This document shows positions 23,671 to 40,514 of a stretch of 64,000 nt of DNA, one piece after another (positions within the stretch are counted from its first letter, which is position 1; each line of letters starts with the position of its first letter). Made by a program: the position numbers and the translations under genes. The notes under the pieces were generated by a model that was not told where the DNA came from, did no database searches, and saw nothing but the letters and a program-made list of their open reading frames with translations. Origin of the DNA: Tautonia plasticadhaerens (GTDB lineage Bacteria > Planctomycetota > Planctomycetia > Isosphaerales > Isosphaeraceae); the NCBI RefSeq assembly GCF_007752535.1, contig NZ_CP036426.1, positions 5,208,001 to 5,272,000 on the forward strand. Direction: 5' to 3'.

Positions 23671-24039
23671 GGGGGCGATTCAGGTTCGACCGGATTTCTG
23701 AGATGTCTGGCTGCATGCCGAGGTTGGTCGGCTGGCCTCGTAAAAAGCCGATCAAAACATTAGCTGCCAACAACCACGTTGGTTCCTACAGCCTCGCCGC
23801 CTGACCGCGGTTAAGCTGCGTCGTGTCATGACTTCGCCTGCGGGTCATGGCCGACGACGACACAGTGGGCTCGCCCGATCTTAACCGCCTGTTGCGGATC
23901 GGGTTAAACTCATAATAGGCTAAGCCGATGGAAACCTCGTCGTTTGGGGTTCCCAGGCCGACAATAAATAGAACGACTACGCATGTAGACGCCTTCATCA
24001 ATGGATCTCGGGACGCGGGTGCAATTCCCGCCGCCTCCA
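23671..24039 (+). ncRNA. ssrA: Transfer-messenger RNA (tmRNA)
   Basis: A complete 369-base gene. The 5' end GGGGGCGATTCAGGTTCGAC and the 3' end with GGGTGCAATTCCCGCCGCCTCCA form the tRNA-like part, with a 7 bp acceptor stem (GGGGGCG with CGCCTCC, one G-T) and discriminator A. CCA is not encoded. The tag reading frame at 23763-23804 reads AANNHVGSYSLAA then TGA, ending in the LAA proteolysis signal expected for ssrA tags. tmRNA with SmpB rescues stalled ribosomes. The 3' end of ssrA is also a frequent attachment site, and a recombinase gene follows. Confidence 0.95.
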
Positions 24040-24042
24040 CTG

Positions 24043-24191: not shown

Positions 24192-25862
24192 GTGCCTCGG
24201 CCCTCATCGGTTCGCCCTTCCCGAGATGCGGGCATGCGGTCTACCAACCTGAAGCGGACGAAGCGGGGGTATGTGCGCAATCTGGGTCGATTGCCACAGG
24301 GCGGTCAGCCCAAGTTCTACCTGGGCCATGATCGGGTGGAGGCGGCCCGACGACTAGAACTGCTCGTGGCGCTCTGGCAGGTCGTCGAGGACCTCCACGC
24401 CTCGGGTCGGCGACCCGGCCCGCCCGCCTGGGACCCTTCCCATCTGGAGGTGGCCAAAGCCGTGGCCAGGGGAGAGCCGCTAAAAGTCCCCAGGGATGGC
24501 GACTACGAATGGCCCGAGACCTACTACCGGCGGGTCAACGAGCTTGCCCTCCGGTTAGGTACCCCGGTTGAGCCTGCTAACCGGCGAACCTACGAGGTTG
24601 GCAAGGAGGATAATCTCGACGGCATCGGTGACTACAGGGCCAAGCTCGGGACCGGGATCGGCACCGATCGCCCCGTGTTGACCGGCCAAACCCTCCACCA
24701 GGCCCTCCGGGCGTACCAGCATTCAATCGAGCGGGAGTACCGGGACGCCGACGGTACGATTAGCGACAACGGCAAGACCAAGGTCACGCAGATCAGGACG
24801 ATCCTCGGCTACGTCCCCGACATCGACCTCGCCGAACTCGACTACCAGGGCACGGATGAACTCTTCGGAATCTTCCGGCGACGGCCACCCTCGAAGCGGT
24901 ACGGCCGACCGATGGCCCGGAAGAGTTGCACCAACTACATCGGGGAGCTAGGCCGGTTCCTCCGCTGGCTGCACCTCTCCGGCGAGTTCCAATGGCGCAA
25001 GCCCGAGGACTTCGAGCACATCCGCCGCAACCCCCGGGAACTGGACGAGGACACCGAGAAGGAGGCCGCCGACGTGCCGATCTGGACCGTGGCCCAATTG
25101 CGGATATTGAACGAGTACGCCACGCCGATCGAGCGAGTTTTTCTCCTTCTGGGCCTCAACTGTGCCTACGGGGCCGACCAAGCGGGCCGGCTCCGGATCG
25201 GTCACCTGCACCTCAAGGATGAGGGCCTGAGCTACATCCGACGGGTCAGGAGGAAGAAGAAGACCCGGTCAATCCATCTGCTCTGGCGGCAGACGGCCGA
25301 TGGCCTCCGCTGGGCGCTCGAACGTCGCAAGTCCCAGCCGTCGGACTCGGACATCCTCCTGCTCACCGAGAAGAACTTGCCGTACTGGAGGAAGACCAAG
25401 GGCGGGAACCGATCCAATGCAATCCCAAGGCTCTGGGACGATCTACTGAAGCGGGTGCTCAGGGATCATCCCAACTTCCCCAGATTGCCGTTCAACTCAT
25501 TGAGAGACACATCGGCCGACATGATTCGCCGCCTGGCGGGCGAGGAGGTCGCCTCCTTGCATTTGGCGCACAAACACCAAAGCAAAGACGAGAATTTGGG
25601 CCGGTACACCAACCCGGTCCGGAAGCGGCACTTCCGGGCGCTCCGTCGCTTGGAGCGGAAGCTCGAATCGGTCTTCCTGGCCGCTGGGGAAGCGCCATGG
25701 TCGCAACGTCCGAAAACCTACATGGGGATTATCAAGACGAAACGCCTCCTCGAACTCCGGGAGCAAGGAGTACCCCCGAGGCAGATCGCCGAGGAATTGG
25801 GGATATCTGTGGCATCGGTCCACCGGATCGCTCCAACTCGACAGCGTAAACCTCGGGCCTGA
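24192..25862 (+). CDS. Atypical tyrosine recombinase with C-terminal helix-turn-helix
   Basis: A 556-residue protein. It starts at a GTG at 24192, and an ATG at 24234 is a good alternative. Residues about 170-290 form the core-binding domain (LTGQTLHQALRAYQHSIERE ... SCTNYIGELGRFLRWLHLSG). The catalytic domain shows LLGLNCAYGADQAGRLRIGH in place of the usual Arg box, NSLRDTSADMIRRL where His-x-x-Arg is expected (Asn instead of His), HLAHKHQSKDENLGRYTNP with the likely nucleophile Tyr, and a final helix-turn-helix (RQIAEELGISVASVHRI). It lies 150 bases downstream of ssrA. It is the probable integrase of the defence-rich segment to the right. Confidence 0.8.
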   Translation: MPRPSSVRPSRDAGMRSTNLKRTKRGYVRNLGRLPQGGQPKFYLGHDRVEAARRLELLVALWQVVEDLHASGRRPGPPAWDPSHLEVAKAVARGEPLKVPRDGDYEWPETYYRRVNELALRLGTPVEPANRRTYEVGKEDNLDGIGDYRAKLGTGIGTDRPVLTGQTLHQALRAYQHSIEREYRDADGTISDNGKTKVTQIRTILGYVPDIDLAELDYQGTDELFGIFRRRPPSKRYGRPMARKSCTNYIGELGRFLRWLHLSGEFQWRKPEDFEHIRRNPRELDEDTEKEAADVPIWTVAQLRILNEYATPIERVFLLLGLNCAYGADQAGRLRIGHLHLKDEGLSYIRRVRRKKKTRSIHLLWRQTADGLRWALERRKSQPSDSDILLLTEKNLPYWRKTKGGNRSNAIPRLWDDLLKRVLRDHPNFPRLPFNSLRDTSADMIRRLAGEEVASLHLAHKHQSKDENLGRYTNPVRKRHFRALRRLERKLESVFLAAGEAPWSQRPKTYMGIIKTKRLLELREQGVPPRQIAEELGISVASVHRIAPTRQRKPRA

Positions 25863-26379: not shown

Positions 26380-28451
26380 ATGCTCGACGAACGCATCAAG
26401 AGCCGCATCCTGGACGACCACAAGCGTCTGACCGCCGAGGGCAGGCTCCCGTCGAGGGCACAGTTGGAGGCTGCAATCCGCACCTTCCGCAGCCGGTTCG
26501 GCCCGGACGTGCTCGCCCGGCTGGACGGCGAGGAACTCCTGGAGGTGATGCACGCCCGAGGGAACCGGGACAGCCTCGTCTACTGGTTGGAGTTCAAGAG
26601 CGACGAGGAGTTTCCCTCCCGCCACTTCGGCAGCATCTCCGGCGGTAGCTCCTTCAACTACGGCATCTTCCGGAGCAGGGACCTCGACTGCTGGGTCACC
26701 GGGAGGCCGCAGAACGTCCGGGAACTGACGGTCCCCGAGGCGGTCGAGATCGCCCGCAGGCAGCGGGACGAACTGGTCCGGAGTGCCGAGCGCATTGGCA
26801 GGCTGCCGGGCGGGGCGGATGACGCCGAGTACCGAACGCTCCAGGAAGACCTGGGGCGCATCGCCCCGTCGGTCTGCGACTCGGCGTGGGGGCACAAGTA
26901 TTCACCCTGATGTCCCCCGAGAAGCTCGACGACTACCACAACCCCGATTACCAGCGGTTCCACCTGGTCAAGATGCTCCAGGTGCCGCCCGAGGGCGAGG
27001 GACGTTACCTCTGCGCCAGCCGGTTCGTCGCCGCCGCCGCCGAACTGGACATCCCGATCAACCACCTGGTGACGGTCCTCAACGAATATCACTCCGCCCA
27101 CCACGGCTACTGGCGTGTCGGCACCTCCGACGGCGGAAGCTCACGGGACTGTTGGCCGGAGATGCGGGACGGCGGGTTCGTGGCCGTCGGCTGGCCCGCC
27201 CTCGGCGACCTTTCCGGCTTCGAGAAGGACTCCACCTCGAAGCAGCGGCTGATCGGGCTGCTCGGGGACCGCTATCCGGGCAGCCCCCAGCAACTCGGTC
27301 GTACGGCGACCCAGGTCCTCAACCTCGTCGCCGGGATCGCCGAGGGGGACATGGTCCTGGCCTGCAACGGGGCCAGGGTACTCGGCGTCGGCAGGGTCGT
27401 CGGGGCCTATGTCTACGAGTCGGGTCAGGACGCCCCGCATCGTAGTCCCGTCGAGTGGCGCTCGCTGGACGAGTGGAAGATGCCCGTTCCCGAAGGACTC
27501 CGATCGACGGTGCACCGGCTGAGGAAGCACTCGGAGACCCTCGTCGAGGCGGAGCGACGTGCCCTGGGCGGCACGATCGGCGTCCGGACATCCCGCCCGG
27601 CGACCCCCACCCCGAAGGCTGGGGCGGTCCCCCGGCTCGACGGCGTGCCGGGCCGCATCCAGTCGGTGCTGGAGCGTCGGGGGCAGGCCATCCTCTACGG
27701 GCCGCCCGGCACCGGCAAGACCTACTGGGCCGAGCGCACCGCCCTGGACCTCGCCTCGTACTCCCACCACGGCAGGCCCTTCGGCGAGCTATCTGACGCC
27801 GAGCGGGGCACGATCCTCGGCGAGCCGGATCGCCCCGGTGCCGTCCGGCTCTGCTGCTTCCACCCGTCCTACGGCTACGAGGACTTCATCGAGGGCTACC
27901 GCCCCGAGTTGCACGACGGCGTCGTGGGCTACGCCCTGCGGGACGGTATCTTCAAGCGGCTCTGCCTGGACGCCGATCGCCAGCCCGACCGCAGCTTCGT
28001 GCTGATCGTCGACGAGATCAATCGGGGCGACTTCCCCCGCATTTTCGGCGAGTTGCTGACGGTCGTCGAGAAGGACAAGCGGGGCAAGCCGGTCCTCCTG
28101 CCGCTGGGCTGCTCGGCGTTCCAAGTACCGCCGAACGTCTCGATCATCGGGACGATGAACACGGCGGATCGGTCGATCGCCCTGCTCGACGCCGCCCTTC
28201 GCCGTCGGTTCGGCTTCGTCGAACTGATGCCCGACGTGGCCCCGCTGGGCGAGTCCGTGGTCGCCGACATCCCGCTGGGGCCCTGGCTGGAGGCGCTGAA
28301 TCGCCGCATCTGCGAGCACGTCGGACGGGACGCCCGCAACCTCCAGGTCGGGCACGCCTACCTGATGGAGGGCGGCCGGCCCGTCCGGGATGTCGCCCGG
28401 TTCGCACGCATCGTCCGGGACGAGATCGTGCCGCTGCTGGAGGAATATTGC
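26380..28451 (+). pseudogene. McrB-like AAA+ ATPase with EVE-like domain, frameshifted and 3'-truncated
   Basis: The first frame (26380 to about 26901) encodes MLDERIKSRILDDHKRLTAE ... SAWGHKY. One base is missing at about 26901 (TATTC for TATTTC), and the second frame continues FTLMSPEKLDDYHNPDYQRF. An EVE/PUA-like module follows (GGFVAVGWPALGDLSGFEKD, GDMVLACNGARVLGVGRVVG), as in modified-base readers. The McrB motor is last: GPPGTGKTYWAE, VLIVDEINRGDFPRIFGELL and GTMNTADRS...LRRRF. Coding ends at LLEEYC where an IS begins, so the last part and any mcrC are gone. McrBC systems restrict modified DNA. Confidence 0.88.
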
Positions 28452-29828
28452 CTGCTTATCACGGATTTGGGGGATGGAAGCGGATGTCCATGTCAGCCCG
28501 TCCGACAGCGGCTATGCTGAGGGTCACGGATCTCCGCCTCGTGAGCCATCAGCAGGGACGACGCCATGCCGGCAGCCGACCCCACGTCCCCGCCCCTCCG
28601 GGGACAGAAGGCCATCTGTATCCCCCGCGCCCCGCAGAAGTATGAGCAGATCGCAGGCGATGCCGAGCGGTTCCGGGAGTATCTGGGCCAGCAGATCGAA
28701 GCCCATCCGGAACTGTTCCCATCCGAGATCCGGCGGGGCTACCGCATGAAGGACACCTACACCTCCCGCAAGGCCGGCTGGAGGCTCCGGCGGATCGACC
28801 TCCGCGACGGCCAGAGCTCCCTGGTCCGACCGTCGTTCTTGATGCCGTAGCTGACCGCCCACACCGAGGACGTGCAGGCCCCCCTTTTCTCCGCAAGTTC
28901 GCCGTCCCTGACTGGGCCCTGACCGAGGTCTTCGGGCGGGGCCCGATGTACTGGCATCGCCTGGGACGCACGCTTGGCCGATCCGGCCTGGTGGGGGCCA
29001 CGGTCAAGGGACCGGAGCGGTTGCCCGGTCATCTGGTCGCCGACGAGAAGCACACGACCTTGGCCGGCGAGGAGGTCTACCTGGCGGCCACCGCCGGCGG
29101 CGGGTGCTGCCTGGGCCTGGCGTTGGCCGAGAAGGCGGATCAGGACGAGTTGACGAGGGCCTACGGCGTGTCCCGGGATGGGGTCCGGGACCTGGACCCG
29201 GAGTACCGGCCCCGGACGGTCAACACCGACGGCTGGGCCGCCACGCAGGCGGCCTGGCGGGCGTTGTTCCAGGGGGCGACGATCATCCTCTGCTTCCTCC
29301 ATGCGTCCCTGGAGATCCGGGAGCGGGCCAAGCACCTGAAGGAGACCTTCGATGCCCTCCGGGGGCGGGTCTGGGGTGCGTATCACGCCCCGGATGCCCG
29401 CACCTTCTCGCAACGGCTTCGCCGGCTGCGGGAGGGGGCCCCGAAGCACATCGACAAGCCGATCGTGCGGGAGAAGGTGCTGTCACTGTGCGAGGAGCGC
29501 GAGGCGTTCGCCCTGGCCTACGCCCATCCCGGCTGCCCTCGGACGAGCAACCCGGTGGACCGGCTGTTGCGACGGCTCGACTGCCACCTGTCCTGCACGC
29601 AGCAACTGCACGGCAAATCGGCAGCGGCTGAGCAGGGGTTGCGAGGTTGGGCGTTGATCCACAACTTCGCCCCGATGTGCCCTTGGACGGTCCGAGAGAC
29701 CCCCGAGTTGAGGAGCCCGGCGGAACGGCTCAACGGGAAGCGGTATCACCCCGACTGGCTCCAGAACCTGCTGATCTCGGCCTCACTCGGAGGGGATCGC
29801 AGGGCTCCCCGAAATCCGTGATAAGCAG
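28452..29828 (+). mobile_element. Degenerate insertion sequence replacing the 3' ends of two defence genes
   Basis: The element is 1377 bp. The terminal inverted repeats begin CTGCTTATCACGGATTT on both ends and match at 22 of 23 positions. The left flank is the mcrB-like gene and the right flank the 3' end of the SNF2 helicase gene on the opposite strand. No target duplication is seen. Both genes stop exactly at the element, which points to an IS-mediated deletion or recombination and not to simple insertion. Confidence 0.85.
28566..29821 (+). pseudogene. DDE-type transposase with a stop and a frameshift
   Basis: The first part (MPAADPTSPPLRGQKAICIP ... SSLVRPSFLMP) ends in TAG at 28848. After the stop, coding potential resumes, and near 28885 one base is missing in a T-run (CCCCCCTTTTCTCC), after which LRKFAVPDWALTEVFGRGPM is restored. 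The catalytic region has HLVADEKHTTLAGEEVYLAA, VNTDGWAATQAAWRALFQGA and SNPVDRLLRRLD. The IS family is not one I can name. Total length is two more than a multiple of three, confirming one lost base. Confidence 0.8.
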
Positions 29829-31405
29829 CAGAATTGCAGGTTGACGCCCTCGGCGGCCGACTCGGTGGCGATCATGATGGTCGCCTCGTCCCGGAAGCGG
29901 TCGACGAGCGCCGACCTCATGTCGGCGGACGCCGACCCGGTGACGCAGTCCTCGCCCCGGTGCCGCTCCAGCCAGTCGGCGTAGATCCGCTTCGACTCCG
30001 GGTCGGTGTTCGTGCCGTTGAAGGTCACGATCCGCCCGGCGTAGCCGCTGCGCTCCAGCAGGTCCTTGAGGTAGTCCTGCGTGCGGCGTGACTCGGTGAA
30101 GATCAGCGCCTTCCTCGGTGCCCCGTTCTTCCCGGCCTGCTCGAACCCCCGCTCCAGGGCGAACAGCAGGGCGTCCCCCTTTGCGTTCCGGCTGATCGAC
30201 TGCGCCAGCGCCCGGTAGCTGCGGAGTTCCTCGATCTCCTCCCTGATGGCCTCCCGGCGGTCCTCGGGGTCGTCCTCGTCCGGATCGCCCTCGTCGTCGC
30301 CGTCGTCGAGGGCCTCGTGCCATTCCTCCTCAAGCTCGTCGGCGTGCTCCACGTCGTCGACCACGGAGCCGACGCCGTCCTCCCCGGCCTCCGCCTGGAG
30401 GGTCTCCAGCCGGTCGATCAGCTTTCCCAGCGTGGCGGTGATCGCAAATGACGACGAGGCCAGGATTTTCCGCAGGATCAGGGTGATGAGTTGCCGCTGC
30501 CCGGACGGCAGGGCCATCAACTCGGGCTTCTGGAGGTAGGTCGAGACCTGTTCGTAGAGGCGGACCTCCTCGTCGGTCTGGGTGAAGTCCTGCGTGATCG
30601 AGATGCGGTTGGTGTACGGGACGTACTCCGAGACCTGTCGCCGCAAGGTGCGCTGGCAGACCGGCCGGAGGCGGGTCCGGAGTTCCTCGATCTGGTCTGG
30701 CGTGACCTTCTCGGCCTTGGTGGCGAACCGGCTCTTGAAGGACTTCTCGTCGCCGAAGAGGTGGGGGTCTACGAAGCTGATGAGCCCGTAAAGCTCCATC
30801 AGCGAGTTCTGGAGCGGGGTCGCCGTCAGCAGGACCTTGGGGCGGGACAGGACGGCGTCCCGGATGGTGCGGGCGATCCGGTTGCTTTTCTTGTAGACGT
30901 TCCGGAGCCGGTGCGCCTCGTCGAGCGTGATAAGGTCCCACGGCACCTGCTTCAGGTCATTCACCTTGGACCGGGCGAACTCGTAGGAGCAGACGACGAC
31001 CCGGTCGGGCTGGTCGAACGGGTTGCCGCCCTGGTGCTTGCGGTGGGCGTTGAAGCTGCGGGTCTCCAGGATGACGGAGTCGATGAAGAACTTCTCCAGC
31101 AGTTCCCGGTTCCACTTCTTGCGGAGCGAGGCAGGGACGATGCAGGCGATGCGGCGGCGGCGTTCCGCCCAGAGTTGGCTGATGATGAGCCCCGCCTCGA
31201 TCGTCTTCCCCAATCCCACCTCGTCGGCGAGGACGGCCCCGTTGGAGAAGGGCGAGCGGAAGGCGAACAGGGCCGCATCTACCTGGTGGGGGTTCAGGTC
31301 GACCGTGGCGTTCAGCAGCGACTGCGACAGCTTCTCGGCGTTGTCGGAGGCCAGCCGCTTCGTCAGTTGGTGAGCAAAGTATTGGGACTGGTATTCGGTC
31401 GGCAC
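29829..31405 (-). pseudogene. SNF2-family helicase, C-terminus lost at the IS border
   Basis: About 525 residues remain. Helicase motifs visible: motif I GAVLADEVGLGKTIEAGLII, motif II LITLDEAHRLRN, motif III LLTATPLQNSLMELYGL, then after an acidic linker (EALDDGDDEGDPDEDD) motif IV ALIFTESRRTQDYL and part of motif V MIATESAAEGVNLQFC. It breaks there. Motif VI with the arginine finger and the C-terminal domain are missing, so ATPase-driven translocation should be lost. RapA/DrmD-like SNF2 helicases of this type occur in several anti-phage systems. It lies downstream of the HerA-type ATPase on the same strand, 126 bases apart. Confidence 0.88.
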
Positions 31406-31531
31406 AATTCTCGTCCGCCAGACGACAGGTCCTCGTCGACCCCGATCGACTCCCCGACGAAGCCCTCCGAACCGGCTATCTTAGGTAGATTTCAGCAGTC
31501 AAGCAAGCAGACACCCTGGAGATTCGCCCGC

Positions 31532-34500
31532 TCAGCCCCCGGTGCCGCCGACGTTCCTGATCGTCTCGCCGCCGTGCTGGCTGCACCGGGGCCGGATGGC
31601 CAGCAGTTGCGGCACCTTGAGAAGCGGGTCGGTGCAGTCGTCGTCGGTCTGGACGAAGCAGACGCCCTGCTCCAGGTCCAGGTTGCTGACCCGCTGGGCC
31701 GAGAGCGCCTCCAGGTTCGGGGCCGCCTTGCGGATGGCGTCGATCGCCTTGCGGTCGGAGGTCTTGAAGATCAGCCGGGTCAGCAGGTACTTGAAGATCC
31801 GGGCCGGGATGCGGTCGGGGAACTGCGAGGCGAGGACGAACGACATCCCGTCGTGGCGGATCTGCGTGATGGCGTTCTCTAGCTCGGCCACGAGGTCCTT
31901 CGAGTCCACGTACTCGTGGGCCTCGTCGAAGACGACCATCTTGTTGACGCCGTTCTTCGCCCGCCGCACGAGGTCGGTCAGGACCAGGCAGAGCTTCAGG
32001 GCGTCGTCGCTGCTGAGCGCCTGCATCCTCAGGTCGAAGACGTTCAGGCTGCCGCCGGTCAGCACGTCGGCCCACTCGTAGGCCCGGTCGTCGGTCAGCC
32101 ACTTGCTGGCGAAGCTCAGGCGGTTCTCGGCCCGCCGCCGCTGCATCGTGCTGAGCCGCTCGTCGGTCAGGATGTGATGCTCCAGGTTCTTGTAGGTCAG
32201 CCGCTCCTGGTAATAGAGCTTCTGGATGATGTCCCGGATCACGTCCATGTACTCGGACTGGGCGCTGGGCGGCTTCATCAGGATCTCCCAGTGCTCCGCC
32301 CCGAGTTCGTCGGGTCGGAACTGGATCGGGAACGTCGGGATGCCCCGGTACTCGTCCCGCCTCCGGTCGAGTTCCGGCCCGTAGCTGAAGACGTTGACCC
32401 GATCGACCCCGGCCGGCTCGGCCCCGTACTCCTGGCGGAGCCGCTCGACCTCGGACGGCTTGGCGTTCGGCCGCATGAACCCCCAGTGCTCGAACCGGGC
32501 GTCGGGGTTGCGCCGGTAGTTGAACGCCACGACTCACATGGGCTTGCGGTGGCGGCTCAGGTTCGGCAGCGCCGCCAGGGCGCTCTCGATCAGCACGCCC
32601 AGGGCGTAGGACTTGCCCGAGCCCATCTAGCCCAGCACGACCATGCACTGCGGCTTCGTGAACGAGACGGCCAGGCCCCGCTTGCCGTCCTTGAGCCGCC
32701 CGATCAGGCCGAGGCTGGGGCTGTCCAGTTCGGTGTCGCCTACCACCACCTCGATCGGGACGGGAGGTGCCGGCTCGACGGCGACCGGCTTGCCGGCAGG
32801 AATCGTGCCCGATCTCCTCGGCGAGGGCTTCGAGGCGGCACTCGGCGTCCCCGAAGGCACGGGGGCGGCGACGTTCCCTGGCGAGGGGGCGGCCTGCGTC
32901 GAGGGATGCGTGGCGGCGGCCGGGGCCGGCTGCGTGCCGTTGTGCCCCGACACAGGTTGCTCCATGCCGATCGCCCGTGCGAAGGATTCGGAGAGGTTGG
33001 CGGCGTTCCTGAGCAACTGCGTCCGGCGTCCCACGCCCTCGCCCTTGACGAACTCGACGAACTGCTGCTTGTCGACCTCGTGGGTGCCGATCGAGAGGTC
33101 GTGCTCCTCGATGGCGACCAGGGCGTCGTAGATGGCATTGAGGAGCGAGATCTCGCCCCCACCGGCCGGGAGGTAGACCCCGCCCATCTCCTGGACCGAC
33201 TCGACCAGCTCCTGGCCCCTTGCCCCGGCGGCCTTGCAGCGCCTGTCACGAAGGAGGACGACCTTCTTCGGGCCCCGGGCGGCCCTCATGACCTCGACCA
33301 GGTTCTTCATCCTCGCCGTGAAGGAGTTCCCCTCGGCGTTGTTGATGCACAGGCAGAGGTCCTCGGCCGTGCCCGGCAGCCGGACGAGCAGGTTCGGCGG
33401 CATGACCTTCGCCCCGCACGTCGCCCGGTCGTAGGCGGCCCGCTCGCCGGAGTGGGCCAGCAGCGTCTCGACGACGTTCCGCATGCGGCCGAAGAGGTCC
33501 TGCTCGATCGGGATCTCCCGGCCGTAAGAGTCGAGGTGCCGCTGCTCGGCCTGCTCCATCGTCGAGCGGATCAGCCCGTCCACCGCCGCTCGGGTCACGA
33601 CGGCCGGGCCGCCCGCCGGCTGGGGGGCGAGGCACTCCTCGTCGCCGTCGAGCCACGCCTCGAACATCGAGCGTGCTTCCTGGATGAAGGAGCGGGGCGA
33701 TCTGGCCTTGCCGCAGAGGGCGGACACGTCGTCCTCCGTGAAGGGATAGATGCTCGTCGACAGCCGGTGCTTCGAGAAGGACGGCTCCAGGTGGGCCGCC
33801 AGCATCTTCAGGCCGTACTGAGGTCCGAAGGTTTCCAGCGTCACGGACTGCTGGGCGATCCGCTCGGTGACACTGGAGTCGAGGGCGTGGCTGAACCAGG
33901 ACTCCCAGAGGCTCGGGAAGATGCAGGTGACGACCAGCAGGTTGGGCGTCATGGTGAAGATCTCCCGCACGGTGTCGCCCCACCGCTGCGAGAGCCGCTG
34001 CTGGTCCCGGAGCCCCTCAAGCTGGTCGAAGGCCAGGATGAGCGGCTGGTAGTAGGTCGAGAGGATGCCGATGGTCTGGATCGCCCGCAGCGCCTGCTCC
34101 TCCCGCTGCTGCTGCGTGGACACGTCGGCTGAGGTCTCGTCGATCTTCACCCAGGTGGGGTCGAGTCCGAGGTCCTTCGCCTCGGCCTCGTCGATGTCCT
34201 GGCCCGACAGCCACTTCAGGAGGACCCGCTTGCGATCCTCCCTGGAGACGAAGCAGTAGGTGATCAGGACGTGGGCGATCCGCTGGTCCACGTCCGGGTT
34301 GTGCGTCTGGAGGTAACGGAGGGTGCGATTGCGGATCGTCCGCATGTTGCTCTGGCGTTGCTCGCCCTCGCCGAGCATGCGGAAGAGGTTGTAGGGGTCG
34401 TCCCGGAGGTTCTTCGCCCAGCGCCGCCTCTGGTCCGCATCCCTGCCGGCTTCGATGTCCTGCTCGAAGCCGGGGATCAGCACGGCCGAGAAGACGTGGG

Positions 34501-34909
34501 CCAGTAGGTCGTCCAGTTGGGTCTGCTGGGGGGTGTCCGGCGAGAGGGACTGGGACAGGCTGCGGATCATCTCGGCCCAGATGTGCTGGGCGACGGCGTC
34601 CTCGTTGTTCGGCTTGCGGACGAAGAGGATGTGGTTGGTCCGGGACAGGTTGCGGGCGACCCGCATGAGCAGGTGGGTCTTGCCCGTCCCCGCCTCACCC
34701 AGGACCAGGATGCCCTGGGTGATCGACTCGCCCCCCGGCGTCCCGGAGGTCGACAGCCGCTTCAGCGCACGCACGATCCGCTTGTAGGCGTGCTGGTTGT
34801 ACTCTTCGAGGTCGGGTGCCCGGTCCCAGGGCGTGTTGACCCGATCGAGGAACGCCGGGGGATCGACTTCCAGCAGGGGGCGGTAGGTCTCATCCTGGTC
34901 GGCGTGCAT
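31532..34909 (-). pseudogene. Two-domain ATPase (AAA plus HerA/FtsK-like) with two in-frame stops
   Basis: The ATG at 34909 gives 1126 codons in one frame to the final stop. The N-terminal AAA module has Walker A LVLGEAGTGKTHLLMRV (residues about 69-83) and LILAFDQLEGLRDQQ. A Pro/Ala-rich linker leads to a HerA-like module: PQCMVVLG, then TAG at 32627-32629, then MGSGKSYALGVLIES (Walker A). A TGA follows at 32534-32536 after HRKPM, then VVAFNYRRN and Walker B NKMVVFDEAHEYVDSKDL. Both stops lie in the open frame. Without readthrough only the AAA half (760 residues) is made. Together with the SNF2 helicase this looks like a two-gene defence unit of uncertain type. Confidence 0.85.
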
Positions 34910-36444: not shown

Positions 36445-37770
36445 ATGTCTATCGCACCGAGCCGTCCACGCAAGCCGACCGCCAAGCCCGTCCGACTCGC
36501 AGAGCCCCCGAATGGCCCTCCCGAATTGCCGGAGATCAACGCCGACCTGCGGGAGCAACTCCGGCGGGACATCGACGAGCGAGGCATCCTCGTGCCGATC
36601 CTCGTGACCCAGGACGGTGAGGTGCTCGACGGCAAGCTGCGGTTGGCGATTGCCCAGGAACTGGGGATCAAGAACATCCCCAAGATCATCGTGGGCAAGC
36701 TCTCCCCCGGCGAGCGACAGGACCTGCGATTGGCGGTCAACCTGTATCGACGGCATCTTACCCGAGAGCAGGTCCGCCATCTCGTGGAATGGGCACTGCG
36801 CCAGCAGCCGGAGGCCAGCGATCGCAGCATCGCCACAAGATGCGGGGTCAGTCCGACGACGGTCGGGACCGTCCGACGAGGTGTCCAAGTTGGACACCTG
36901 CCGACGAGGAACGGCCAGGATGGCAAGCGATATCCTTCCACCCGCAAGCCGGTCGTCATCACCAGCAGCGAGTCCCAGGCCAGGGAGGCGGCTCAACTCC
37001 TCAGCGAACTCGGCGATGATGCCCCTGACCGAGCGATCAACATCAAGAAACTCCGCCGGGTCAGGAGCGCAAAGGGACGGGCGGATCTATTGGCGAGAGT
37101 TTCGGAGATGAAGCCGGGGGTTGATCCCGACTACGTGGTTCACCACTGCGACTTCCGCTCGCTCACCGGCCTTTTCGAACCCGGCTCGGTGGACCTGGTG
37201 CTGGCCGACCCGCCCTGGGGAGGGCAATTTTCCCCACATCGACGGGCCTTTGCGGAGACAATCGAGCGGCTGCTCAAGCCCGACGGGATCGCAGCCATCT
37301 ACACCGGTGTTGCACATATGCCCGAGTTCCTCGACGAACTCAGGGCGGTGGGGCTGAAGTACCTCTGGACGATCGTGGCGGCCAGGAAGGCGAGCACCGT
37401 CAACCAGAGACACAGACTGATAAATAGATTGGTTCCGATCGTACTCGTCGGAAAGGGTGGGCTTCGGACGAGCACAGTCCTCAACGATTTGCTCGATCCC
37501 ATGGGTCGTGAAAAGCAGCACCATCCCTGGCAGCAGCCCATCGAGGAGGCCGTCGAGATCATCCGGGCGCTCTGCCCGCCGGGCGGCCTGGTGGCCGATG
37601 TTTGCACCGGCTCTGGCTCGACGGCGGTGGCGACGATCCGGGTCGGCGAGGGGAGGCGATTTGCAGGCTGCGAGGTCGGCAGGGGGACGGTGGAGATCGC
37701 CAGGGCGAGGATCGTCGAGGCTCTGGAGGGGAGGGATGTCGGGGCGGATCTTGAGACGGCGATGAACTGA
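36445..37770 (+). CDS. ParB-like domain fused to a DNA methyltransferase (beta-type order)
   Basis: A 441-residue protein. Residues about 25-110 form a ParB-N-like domain (IDERGILVPILVTQDGEVLDGKLRLAIAQEL). A helix-turn-helix follows (SDRSIATRCGVSPTTVGTVR). The C-terminal half is a DNA amino-methyltransferase: motif IV DPPWGG with Asp at residue 255 and motif I GLVADVCTGSGSTAVAT, the IV-before-I order of beta-class N4/N6 enzymes. ParB-methyltransferase fusions are typical of phages and mobile elements, where they act as solitary methylases or protect element DNA. The gene is intact, unlike its tandem neighbour. Confidence 0.88.
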   Translation: MSIAPSRPRKPTAKPVRLAEPPNGPPELPEINADLREQLRRDIDERGILVPILVTQDGEVLDGKLRLAIAQELGIKNIPKIIVGKLSPGERQDLRLAVNLYRRHLTREQVRHLVEWALRQQPEASDRSIATRCGVSPTTVGTVRRGVQVGHLPTRNGQDGKRYPSTRKPVVITSSESQAREAAQLLSELGDDAPDRAINIKKLRRVRSAKGRADLLARVSEMKPGVDPDYVVHHCDFRSLTGLFEPGSVDLVLADPPWGGQFSPHRRAFAETIERLLKPDGIAAIYTGVAHMPEFLDELRAVGLKYLWTIVAARKASTVNQRHRLINRLVPIVLVGKGGLRTSTVLNDLLDPMGREKQHHPWQQPIEEAVEIIRALCPPGGLVADVCTGSGSTAVATIRVGEGRRFAGCEVGRGTVEIARARIVEALEGRDVGADLETAMN

Positions 37771-38823
37771 GTCATCGACAGTCTGCTCACGTCCCGAGGT
37801 TTCTCCCGAATCCAGCGATCAACTTCAGAGTAAACGCCGATGTCCACCGCCCCGAGCCGACGCAAGGCCGCCTCTAAGAACGCCTGGATCGCAAAGCCCC
37901 GGTACGAGTCCGTTCTCGACCTGCCGCCGCTTGCCCCGGATCAGTATGAGGGGCTGCGGGACAGTATCGCCGCCCAGGGCGTCCTCGTCCCGATCATCGT
38001 CGACTCGGACAGGCCGCTCCGCAGGATCATCGACGGCAACCACCGACGGAAGATCGCCGATGAACTCGATGTCGACTGCCCCGAGGTCGTGAAAGAGGGG
38101 CTGAGCGAGCAAGAGTTGCGGTCGCTTGCGAGAGCGCTCAACCTGGCACGGCGGCAGTTGAGCCAAGAACAGAAGCGGCAGATCATCGCCGATCAGTTGA
38201 GGGAGACCCCTCGAAGGTCAGACAGGTGGGTCGCCAGGCAGCTTGACGTCCACCATGCCACGGTCGCATCGGTACGCTCCACTATGGAGGGCACTGGTCA
38301 GATTATCCAGTGCGCCTCCAGGCTTGGGGCCGACAACAGGGTCCAGCCGGCGCATCGGCTCACGTCGACCAACGGCAAGCCCGCTCCGGAGGTCGACACG
38401 GTCCCGATCCGCCCTCTCCCAGCCTCGTCGGGCGACCTCGACGAGGCTCTGGAGCGTGACGATCCACTCGCCGACGTTGACGAGCAGGCGATCCTCCGTC
38501 GAGCAAAGGAGATACGCCAGCGGAGGATCGTCGAGTGGCGAGAGCGTCAGCAGGAGCGAGAGGAACAAGCTCGGCGGAAGTTGAGCAGCAAACTCACTTG
38601 GAAAATCACAGCAGATCAGCGGGTCGTCAGGTGCCATCTGCTCATCGCCGACCCGCCATACGGCATCAGTCGAGAGCCGTGGGAGCCCGCCACGAAGGAG
38701 TGGTGCTGCCGCTGGACGACGTGCGGGGCGGACTTCCTCGCAATCTTCTGGTCCCAACAGAGGCTCTTTGAGGGGCGAAAGTGGTTCGACGAGTTGCTGA
38801 AGGGGTACAAATTCCAACAAATG

Positions 38824-39912
38824 CTAGTGTCCCGAGTCGGAGGTCCGTTTACAAACCCGCTTGATGCGGTTGAGGATCAGGCCGGCGTCTGCGGCCCACA
38901 CGAACGGCTTGGGGTCCGCGTTGTGGTGCTCCAGGTACCCTCGGATCGCCGCCTCCAACGCCGCCACGCTGCGGAACACGCCGCGTCGGATCCGCGTCTC
39001 GGTGATCTCCGCGAAGAACCGCCCGACCGGGTTCAGCCAAGAGCTGCGGGTCGGAGTGAAGTGCGGGTGGTACTCAGGGGGCCGCAGGAACCATCGCTCC
39101 ACCGCCGGCGTCTCGTGGGTCGCGTAGTGGTCCAGCACCAGGTGGACCTCCACGCCCGGCTCGCGCGGGACGCGGGCGTGGACCTCGTCCAGGAACCGCA
39201 GGAACCCCTTCGCGCGGTGCCTCCGGTGGCACCGACCGATCACCTCGCCGGTAGCCACGTTCGGGGCCGCGAACAGCGATGTGGTCCCGTTGCGGACGTA
39301 GTCGTGGGTAGGCCGCCCGGCCTGCCCCGGCGTCATCGGCAGCAGCGGCTGGGTCCGGCCCAGGGCCTGGACCTGGCTCTTCTCGTCGACGCACAGGGCG
39401 ATCGCCCGCTCCGGCGGGCTCATGTACAGCCCGACGACGTCGCGGACCTTCGCGACGAAGAACGGGTCGGTCGAGAGCTTGGAGGTCTCGCGGAGGTGCG
39501 GCTTCAGCCCGAACGAGCGCCAGATCCGCCCGACGGCCGTCTGGGACATGCCGGCGGCCTCGGCCATGCCGCGGGTACTCCAGTGCGTGGCCGACTCGGG
39601 CTTGGTCTCCAGCGTCCCGGTGACGACCCGCTCGACGTCGGCGTCGGCGATCGTGCGCGGCGCGCCGGGGCGGGGCTCGTCGGCCAGCCCCTCCAGGCGT
39701 CGCTCGACGAACCGCCGCCGCCGGGTGCCAACGGTGGCCGAGCAGACGCGGGGCCTGGCGGCGACCGCCTCGTTCTCCAGCCCCTCGGCGCAGGCCGGGA
39801 CGATGCGGGCGCGGGTGGCGCGCCGCAGGGTGCTCTTGGGGCGGCTCGCCCAGGTCGTCAACGTCTGCCGCTCGTCGTCGCTCAGGACCAGCTCGGCCAG
39901 CGGTCGCGCCAT
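38824..39912 (-). CDS. IS630-family transposase
   Basis: A 362-residue protein. The N-terminal helix-turn-helix (LVLSDDERQTLTTWASRPKS and ATVGTRRRRFVERRLEGL) precedes the DDE core: ALCVDEKSQVQALGRTQP (first Asp), HLVLDHYATHETPAVERW (second Asp) and SSWLNPVGRFFAEITETRIR (Glu). The stop codon TAG is completed by the duplicated TA and one flanking base outside the element, so termination depends on the target. The start is MARPLAELVLSDDER with a GGAGA just upstream. Confidence 0.95.
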   Translation of the reverse strand: MARPLAELVLSDDERQTLTTWASRPKSTLRRATRARIVPACAEGLENEAVAARPRVCSATVGTRRRRFVERRLEGLADEPRPGAPRTIADADVERVVTGTLETKPESATHWSTRGMAEAAGMSQTAVGRIWRSFGLKPHLRETSKLSTDPFFVAKVRDVVGLYMSPPERAIALCVDEKSQVQALGRTQPLLPMTPGQAGRPTHDYVRNGTTSLFAAPNVATGEVIGRCHRRHRAKGFLRFLDEVHARVPREPGVEVHLVLDHYATHETPAVERWFLRPPEYHPHFTPTRSSWLNPVGRFFAEITETRIRRGVFRSVAALEAAIRGYLEHHNADPKPFVWAADAGLILNRIKRVCKRTSDSGH

Positions 39913-39993
39913 GTTGGGGTCTCCTTTGGGGAGACTCTACCGGGCGAACGGCGAGGGCGCAAGGTTATTCAACGGATTTCCGACTCAGGACAC
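38827..39993 (-). mobile_element. IS630-family insertion sequence, complete
   Basis: The element is 1167 bp. The ends share GTGTCCYGAGTCGGA followed by TCCGTT (20 of 23 matching). The TA duplication is at 38825-38826 and 39994-39995. Precise excision restores the methyltransferase reading frame. The transposase is intact. Confidence 0.95.
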
Positions 39994-40514
39994 TAGTTTG
40001 GCATGCTCCGAACAACAACGCTCACAACAGCCGGCATCGATTCAAGGAGACTTGGGAGCCGATCTTCATCTACCGGCGAATTGGCTCGAAACGCTTGATC
40101 TACTCGCAGGACAAGCCCTGGGGGCACGGTCTGCTTAACCACGATTGCCACGTCGCCCCCGTGCCGGAGGGAAATTACAAGGGTGCAGACATGAAATGTC
40201 ACCCCTGTCAGAAACCTCTCTCCGTCATGTGATGGCTCATCTACGCACTGGCCGAGCCGGGCGAGATGGTCGCCTCGCCCTTCGCCGGGGTCGCACCTTG
40301 CGGTGTCGCAGCGACCCAACTCGGGCGAAATTACCACGGCATCGAGATTGACGACGACTGTCGACGGCTCGCTGAGGGGCGGATAGCAATGTACGGGGCG
40401 GACAAGCGGTAGCCGCCTGGGATTGACCCTCTCGACCTCCTTGCCCCCTCCGCCTCAGTCGACCATCATGCGGGGAGTCCGCTCGACCCGTCCCCAAGCC
40501 CCGGAGCGACCCCG

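What the first reader, a model, noticed from the sequence alone, without database searches (positions are those of the whole stretch)
29829..34909. AAA/HerA double ATPase next to an SNF2 helicase: candidate undescribed defence unit
One polypeptide combines an AAA sensor-like module and a HerA/FtsK-like motor, followed by an SNF2 helicase, all on one strand. HerA, SNF2 and AAA proteins recur in anti-phage systems, but this two-gene fusion arrangement is not one I can name. It sits with restriction and methylation genes. In this genome it is inactivated.
Basis: partly seen in the sequence, partly recalled or inferred. Interest (0 to 1): 0.65.

Follow-up and report, generated by a model that had tools for sequence, protein, structure and literature searches.

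The report
Broken AAA-HerA defence ATPase beside DrmD
A planctomycete chromosome carries a damaged gene for a two-engine DNA-handling protein (an AAA switch fused to a HerA DNA pump) in an island of broken anti-virus genes; relatives show that this gene is a mobile unit of its own and not a partner of the helicase beside it.

Summary
Window 34909→31532 (−) is one 1125-codon frame: AAA ATPase, a middle domain that looks like a dead restriction-nuclease fold, then a HerA/FtsK pump. Two in-frame stops break the HerA part. It is followed by an SNF2 helicase of the 'DrmD_b' family, cut at 29829 by a 1377-bp insertion sequence. Intact fusions exist in two relatives (82% and 72% identical over the AAA half). 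In four loci the fusion has four different neighbourhoods (alone; Mrr plus class 1 DISARM; a DUF4011 helicase; DrmD_b here), so no two-gene unit is conserved. DrmD_b relatives on plasmids mostly sit in methyltransferase/ResIII-helicase operons. The fusion best fits the published 'HerA/FtsK capture' defence theme (Orc/CDC6-like AAA + inactive REase + HerA + nuclease); one relative encodes the same parts as separate genes, with a PD-(D/E)XK nuclease fused to HerA. Inactivation is partial: in the window lineage the HerA half has lost purifying selection (19 amino-acid-changing vs 10 silent codon changes, against 9:35 in the relative), while the AAA half is still constrained (13:37). New variant of a known kind, moderate interest.

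The parts
23671..24040 (+). tmRNA gene; the island begins just after it
   Evidence: ARAGORN
24234..25862 (+). integrase-like protein (tyrosine-recombinase-type C-terminal motifs by eye, plus a C-terminal HTH)
   Evidence: sequence read directly; HTH hits in Pfam and PHROGs
26910..28451 (+). McrB-like GTPase/AAA gene, truncated at its 3' end by the IS
   Evidence: NF008457 McrB E 5.8e-42, AAA_5
28452..29828 (+). IS element, about 1377 bp, ends CTGCTTATCACGGATTT; four further full-length near-identical copies plus one partial in the genome; no perfect target duplication here
   Evidence: weak IS256-family transposase hit
29829..31405 (-). DrmD_b-type SNF2 helicase, first ~525 residues only
   Evidence: NF038318, PDLC02619; about 60% identical to plasmid pK2D_1 DrmD_b
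31532..34909 (-). AAA-HerA fusion gene, 1125 codons with two in-frame stops
33650..34822 (-). AAA+ ATPase domain (residues ~30-420), Walker A GEAGTGKTH, Walker B LILAFDQLEGL
33110..33502 (-). middle domain (residues ~470-600), predicted alpha-beta-beta-beta-alpha-beta restriction-endonuclease-like fold without conserved catalytic D/ExK residues
   Evidence: low-confidence model
31553..32731 (-). HerA/FtsK ATPase domain (residues 727-1119) with C-terminal RPRCSQHGG motif
32627..32629 (-). first in-frame stop (TAG), inside the HerA Walker A loop
32534..32536 (-). second in-frame stop (TGA)
36445..37770 (+). ParB-N6/N4 methyltransferase neighbour; G042 also has a ParB-MTase beside the fusion but it is not an orthologue (32% over 114 aa)
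38824..39912 (-). IS630-family transposase inserted next to a second ParB-like gene (37840 onwards)
   Evidence: NF033545 E 1.4e-64

Best explanation
The gene encodes (in its intact orthologues) a single-chain HerA/FtsK 'capture' defence ATPase. An N-terminal AAA+ switch of the AAA_16 (Orc/CDC6-STAND-like) kind is joined to a catalytically dead restriction-nuclease-like domain, probably a DNA reader, and then to a HerA-type hexameric DNA pump. Proposed working: the AAA and dead-nuclease part recognises an invader DNA structure or complex, the HerA ring then grips and pumps that DNA, and a separate nuclease cuts it. In relatives the nuclease is Mrr in the overlapping next gene (G018), a PD-(D/E)XK nuclease fused to HerA (G125), or an RNase T-type exonuclease fused to the AAA part (cyanobacterial plasmids). 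In this genome the gene lies in an island beside tmRNA, and its HerA half is dead. The adjacent DrmD_b helicase is an independent neighbour, the stump of a methyltransferase/ResIII-helicase (Type III RM-like) defence operon; a deletion linked to an IS appears to have joined it to a truncated McrB-like gene. Shown: domain parts, intact orthologues, differing neighbours, IS structure, loss of constraint on HerA. Inferred: DNA sensing, pumping, nuclease hand-off, anti-phage role.
For: Fusion and intact orthologues. HerA half aligns end to end with the C-terminus of ~1850-aa proteins of MADS-type operons (28-31%, E 1e-58 to 1e-50) and with a 389-aa HerA in an archaeal locus resembling the published BREX-Related Capture system (PMC12839542). 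A C-terminal RPRxxxHGG motif is shared by all of these and absent from two canonical HerAs; it resembles the clade-6 signature in PMC10853773. Middle domain: strand/helix order of a PD-(D/E)XK core, best fold match EcoT38I restriction enzyme (Foldseek E 2e-3, prob 0.98; BamHI Z 5.4), no conserved catalytic residues in the ten aligned members. Unfused form: G125 has a 321-aa protein, an AAA-plus-middle-domain protein and a PDDEXK_1-HerA protein in a row on one strand. G018: Mrr gene overlaps the fusion's stop, followed by DISARM DrmD/DrmMI. PMC10853773 describes the same set (Orc/CDC6 AAA, inactive REase between AAA and wHTH, active REase, HerA/FtsK, wHTH) in single or multiple polypeptides. 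Independence from SNF2. Decay.
Against: No functional data. The AAA subfamily and the dead-nuclease fold rest on weak profile hits and low-confidence models (mean pLDDT 51 and 54); no PDB sequence match. The window has no active nuclease next to the fusion, and only one of the intact relatives (G018) has one, itself frameshifted. Only four fusion loci plus one decayed remnant were seen; wide protein searches of the phylum failed, and one sample of 22 genomes of the phylum gave only distant relatives.
Confidence: 0.6

Rival explanations
1. One reading: AAA-HerA and the SNF2 helicase form one undescribed two-gene defence unit.
For: Same strand, 126 bp apart in the window; G018 also has an SNF2 (class 1 DrmD) about 2.5 kb downstream.
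Against: The SNF2 in G018 is a different DrmD family (28% over 214 aa) inside a DISARM-type locus; G042 and Blastopirellula have none in the sequence held. Plasmid DrmD_b relatives sit with methyltransferase and helicase genes in 5 of 6 loci read and none has an AAA-HerA fusion.
Confidence: 0.06
2. AAA-HerA is an accessory gene nested in the DrmD_b operon, as SIR2 + canonical HerA are nested after DrmD_b on plasmid pK2D_1.
For: pK2D_1 carries DrmD_b-SIR2-HerA-Type III MTase-HEC-05-Type III REase, so HerA genes do get recruited there.
Against: In the window the fusion lies upstream, not downstream, of DrmD_b; its HerA is unrelated to the pK2D_1 HerA beyond the superfamily (18% identity); orthologues occur without DrmD_b.
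Confidence: 0.14
3. The fusion serves a mobile element's own DNA transfer, segregation or packaging rather than defence.
For: HerA/FtsK ATPases pump DNA in conjugation and packaging (PHROGs terminase hit E 6e-12); the island is beside tmRNA; G042 has a ParB-MTase and an HTH_36 protein next door.
Against: No relaxase, mating-pair or capsid gene was identified among the neighbours examined; no relative in phage records or viral contigs; neighbours include Mrr, DISARM, DUF4011 helicase and McrB-like defence genes.
Confidence: 0.17
4. The two stops are read through (or are sequencing errors) and the window gene is intact.
For: The frame is otherwise open over 1125 codons.
Against: In the window lineage the HerA half has 19 amino-acid-changing vs 10 silent codon changes against 9:35 in G042 (Fisher p 1.8e-4; dN/dS about 0.64 vs 0.09): it has been out of use for some time.
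Confidence: 0.03

Closest known systems
HerA/FtsK capture systems with Orc/CDC6 AAA+ and inactive REase (PMC10853773)
   Same: Same parts list: AAA+ ATPase, restriction-nuclease-like domain without catalytic residues after it, HerA/FtsK ATPase; mobile/defence neighbourhoods; nuclease nearby in G018 and G125.
   Different: Here AAA, dead nuclease and HerA are one chain with no active nuclease in it, and the HerA has the RPRxxxHGG tail; whether the paper's data include this fusion could not be checked (supplements not available).
MADS (HerA-type C-terminus of its large ATPase)
   Same: HerA domain 28-31% identical over ~390 aa with the same C-terminal motif.
   Different: No MADS kinase, specificity subunit or large N-terminal region beside the window gene; N-terminal halves unrelated.
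BREX-Related Capture systems (PMC12839542), e.g. the Haloplanus locus L031
   Same: HerA with the same C-terminal motif next to an ATPase and a GNAT gene.
   Different: Separate genes, a BrxC-like ATPase instead of the AAA_16 module; no detectable similarity between the AAA parts.
DISARM DrmD (NF038317/NF038318)
   Same: The SNF2 neighbour matches NF038318 strongly over its remaining length.
   Different: No DrmA, DrmB or DrmC hit among the island proteins scanned; closest plasmid relatives belong to methyltransferase/ResIII-helicase operons.
HerA-SIR2 / HerA-DUF4297
   Same: HerA-family pump in a defence setting.
   Different: Canonical HerA there (18% identity); no SIR2 or DUF4297 hit here.

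Membership tests
HerA/FtsK capture (Orc/CDC6-iREase type) | Orc/CDC6-type AAA+ ATPase | tested here: inconclusive
   AAA_16 above cut-off in intact orthologues; fold search gives AAA+ proteins generally, including ORC and BrxC among weak hits; low-confidence model
HerA/FtsK capture (Orc/CDC6-iREase type) | inactive REase domain after the AAA core | tested here: inconclusive
   PD-(D/E)XK-like topology, EcoT38I/BamHI among top matches, no conserved catalytic D/ExK; model pLDDT 54, Z below 8
HerA/FtsK capture (Orc/CDC6-iREase type) | HerA/FtsK ATPase | tested here: met
HerA/FtsK capture (Orc/CDC6-iREase type) | active REase in the same operon (described as usual, not invariable) | tested here: inconclusive
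   no nuclease hit beside the fusion in the window; present in G018 (Mrr, frameshifted) and fused to HerA in G125
HerA/FtsK capture (Orc/CDC6-iREase type) | wHTH | tested here: inconclusive
   two helices after the middle domain in the model (residues 614-646), too low confidence
DISARM | drmA, drmB and drmC core genes | tested here: not met
   none of the seven island proteins from 26.4-40.0 kb scanned against PADLOC is DrmA/B/C apart from the SNF2 gene's own superfamily hit
DISARM DrmD_b (NF038318) | score above curated cut-off | tested here: inconclusive
   471 bits against 950, but only about 485 of 868 positions remain because of the IS
MADS | mad8 HerA gene | tested here: inconclusive
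   PADLOC mad8 model hits but it matches all 14 control genomes, so it is not specific; direct alignment shows homology
MADS | kinase, MTase, S-subunit genes in one operon | tested here: not met
   none found in the proteins scanned around the fusion; compare
HerA-SIR2 / HerA-DUF4297 | canonical HerA plus SIR2 or DUF4297 gene | tested here: not met
ARMADA | YprA-like helicase and PglX-like MTase with the SNF2 helicase | tested here: not met
   no such hit among the island proteins scanned; definition from PMC12458937

The most novel reading that the evidence does not exclude
The AAA-plus-dead-nuclease block is a plug-in invader sensor that recurrently swaps its DNA-processing partner (HerA pump, PD-(D/E)XK-HerA, RNase T exonuclease, an AAA_12 helicase remnant, or none) and can keep working on its own: in this genome it stays under purifying selection although the HerA half behind it has been lost.
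Probability: 0.3. Interest if true: 0.6.

Novelty: new variant of a known kind. Interest (0 to 1): 0.42.

Why it matters
If right, it gives a compact, single-chain test object for the HerA/FtsK capture idea, which the papers read here present as inference from sequence and structure: switch, DNA reader and pump in one polypeptide with intact natural versions. It also warns that neighbouring helicase and ATPase genes in a defence island need not form a system, and that generic models (PADLOC mad8) label any FtsK/HerA protein as MADS.

Tried and rejected
PADLOC mad8 as evidence for MADS: rejected, the model rings in all 14 control genomes. DISARM membership of the window locus: rejected for lack of drmABC; class 1 DISARM DrmD/DrmMI genes exist elsewhere in the genome. 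Shared ParB-MTase neighbour with G042: rejected, not orthologous. BrxC-like identity of the AAA part: no similarity found to the Haloplanus BrxC-like protein. att repeat of the tmRNA end within the window: none longer than 12 nt. Viral contigs and phage records: no relative. Solved structures by sequence: none. Class, order and phylum-wide protein searches failed repeatedly, so phyletic spread is under-sampled. MADS primary paper not found in the library. First flank script was void because the window was not loaded; repeated.
Full report
Setting. The window is chromosomal (G000 contig C1, positions 5208001-5272000), GC about 68%; relatives named in the searches are planctomycetes. A tmRNA gene ends at 24040 and is followed by an integrase-like gene, an McrB-like gene, an IS, the two genes of the finding, membrane and hypothetical ORFs, two ParB-type genes (one a ParB-methyltransferase) and an IS630 transposase. 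This reads as a defence-rich island integrated at the tmRNA gene; no attachment repeat was found inside the window.

The fusion. Reading 34909→31532 on the minus strand gives 1125 codons with two internal stops. Residues ~30-420 are an AAA+ ATPase, ~470-600 a middle domain, ~650-725 a proline-rich linker and 727-1119 a HerA/FtsK ATPase with an intact-looking Walker B (FDEAH) and a C-terminal RPRCSQHGG motif. G042 (same genus) and G018 (same family) carry intact fusions of 1120 and 1123 aa, 82% and 72% identical over the AAA half, and a Blastopirellula MAG has a 55% homologue that runs off its contig. G012 has the AAA half with a different C-terminus (AAA_12 helicase-like) and, elsewhere, decayed pieces of an AAA-HerA fusion.

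The neighbour. The SNF2 gene matches NF038318/PDLC02619 (DrmD_b) at E about 1e-140 but is cut after ~525 residues by the IS. Of its plasmid relatives (52 records at E 1e-30 or better), six loci were read; five are clear operons with methyltransferase and ResIII-type or DEAD-box helicase genes, and for two of these PADLOC types the partners as Type III RM. On planctomycete plasmid pK2D_1 (60% identity) SIR2 + canonical HerA, a HEC-05 protein and Type III genes follow it. None carries an AAA-HerA fusion.

Neighbours of the fusion differ in all loci. G042: between a gene conserved in four genomes and a ParB-MTase; in the other three genomes the conserved gene is not followed by matching sequence. 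G018: overlapping Mrr (frameshifted), then class 1 DISARM DrmD and DrmMI. Blastopirellula: DUF4011/MTES_1575 helicase. Window: DrmD_b. A conserved two-gene unit is therefore not supported.

What it probably is. Separate modules occur elsewhere: the AAA-plus-middle block alone (Thiotrichaceae), fused behind an RNase T exonuclease on cyanobacterial plasmids, and in G125 as a gene lying between a 321-aa protein and a PDDEXK_1-HerA fusion. In other relatives the HerA half forms the C-terminus of the ~1850-aa proteins of MADS-type operons and a separate gene in Haloplanus beside a BrxC-like ATPase and a GNAT gene, which resembles the BREX-Related Capture system of PMC12839542. The middle domain model has the alpha-beta-beta-beta-alpha-beta order of restriction nucleases, its best Foldseek match is EcoT38I (E 2e-3), and no catalytic D/ExK is conserved; the models are low confidence and this is a lead, not proof. 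PMC10853773 describes this combination of parts, in single or multiple polypeptides, and proposes that HerA/FtsK pumps invader DNA toward a nuclease. I therefore commit to the capture-ATPase reading at 0.6, marking sensing, pumping and nuclease hand-off as inferred.

Inactivation. The IS (28452-29828) has four further full-length near-identical copies and one partial copy in the genome; two of the four full-length copies are flanked by 8-bp duplications, the window copy is not, and it joins a truncated McrB-like gene to a truncated DrmD gene, which fits an IS-linked deletion. In the fusion, codon changes private to the window lineage (G018 as outgroup) are 37 silent to 13 amino-acid-changing in residues 1-640 but 10 to 19 in 741-1125; in the G042 lineage they are 43:23 and 35:9. 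Fisher tests: HerA half window vs G042 p 1.8e-4; window AAA vs HerA p 8e-4. The stops are thus probably real and not new, and the 760-residue AAA product may still be in use. Counts are small, and the two stop codons themselves are among the 19.

Limits. Four fusion loci and one decayed remnant; phylum-scale protein searches failed; no functional data; AAA subfamily and middle-domain fold unproven.

Noticed in passing
window 26910-28451: McrB-like gene with a PDC-S02-like N-terminal domain (PADLOC), truncated by the IS; a 48% identical relative lies on an Azospirillum megaplasmid.
   Followed up: partly
L063 5546-14001 and L064 3949-12000 (G000:C1 about 4321546-4330000 and 5941949-5950000): Two class 1 DISARM DrmD+DrmMI loci elsewhere in the same genome; in L064 the DrmD frame is split into two ORFs.
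   Followed up: partly
window 36445-39996: Two neighbouring ParB-type genes; the second (from 37840) appears interrupted by an IS630 element at 38824-39912.
   Followed up: no
L043 (CP036351 20459-33743): SIR2 plus canonical HerA nested between DrmD_b and Type III RM genes with a HEC-05 protein on plasmid pK2D_1: defence genes nested in one operon.
   Followed up: partly
PADLOC model PDLC04140 (mad8), searched in planctomycete and control genomes: The mad8 model matches FtsK/HerA-like proteins in all 14 control genomes, so MADS calls resting on it alone are unsafe.
   Followed up: yes
L030 7497-11463: On a Synechococcus plasmid the exonuclease-AAA protein is followed by a TIR-domain gene and a macro-domain gene, a possible NAD-based effector pair.
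   Followed up: no
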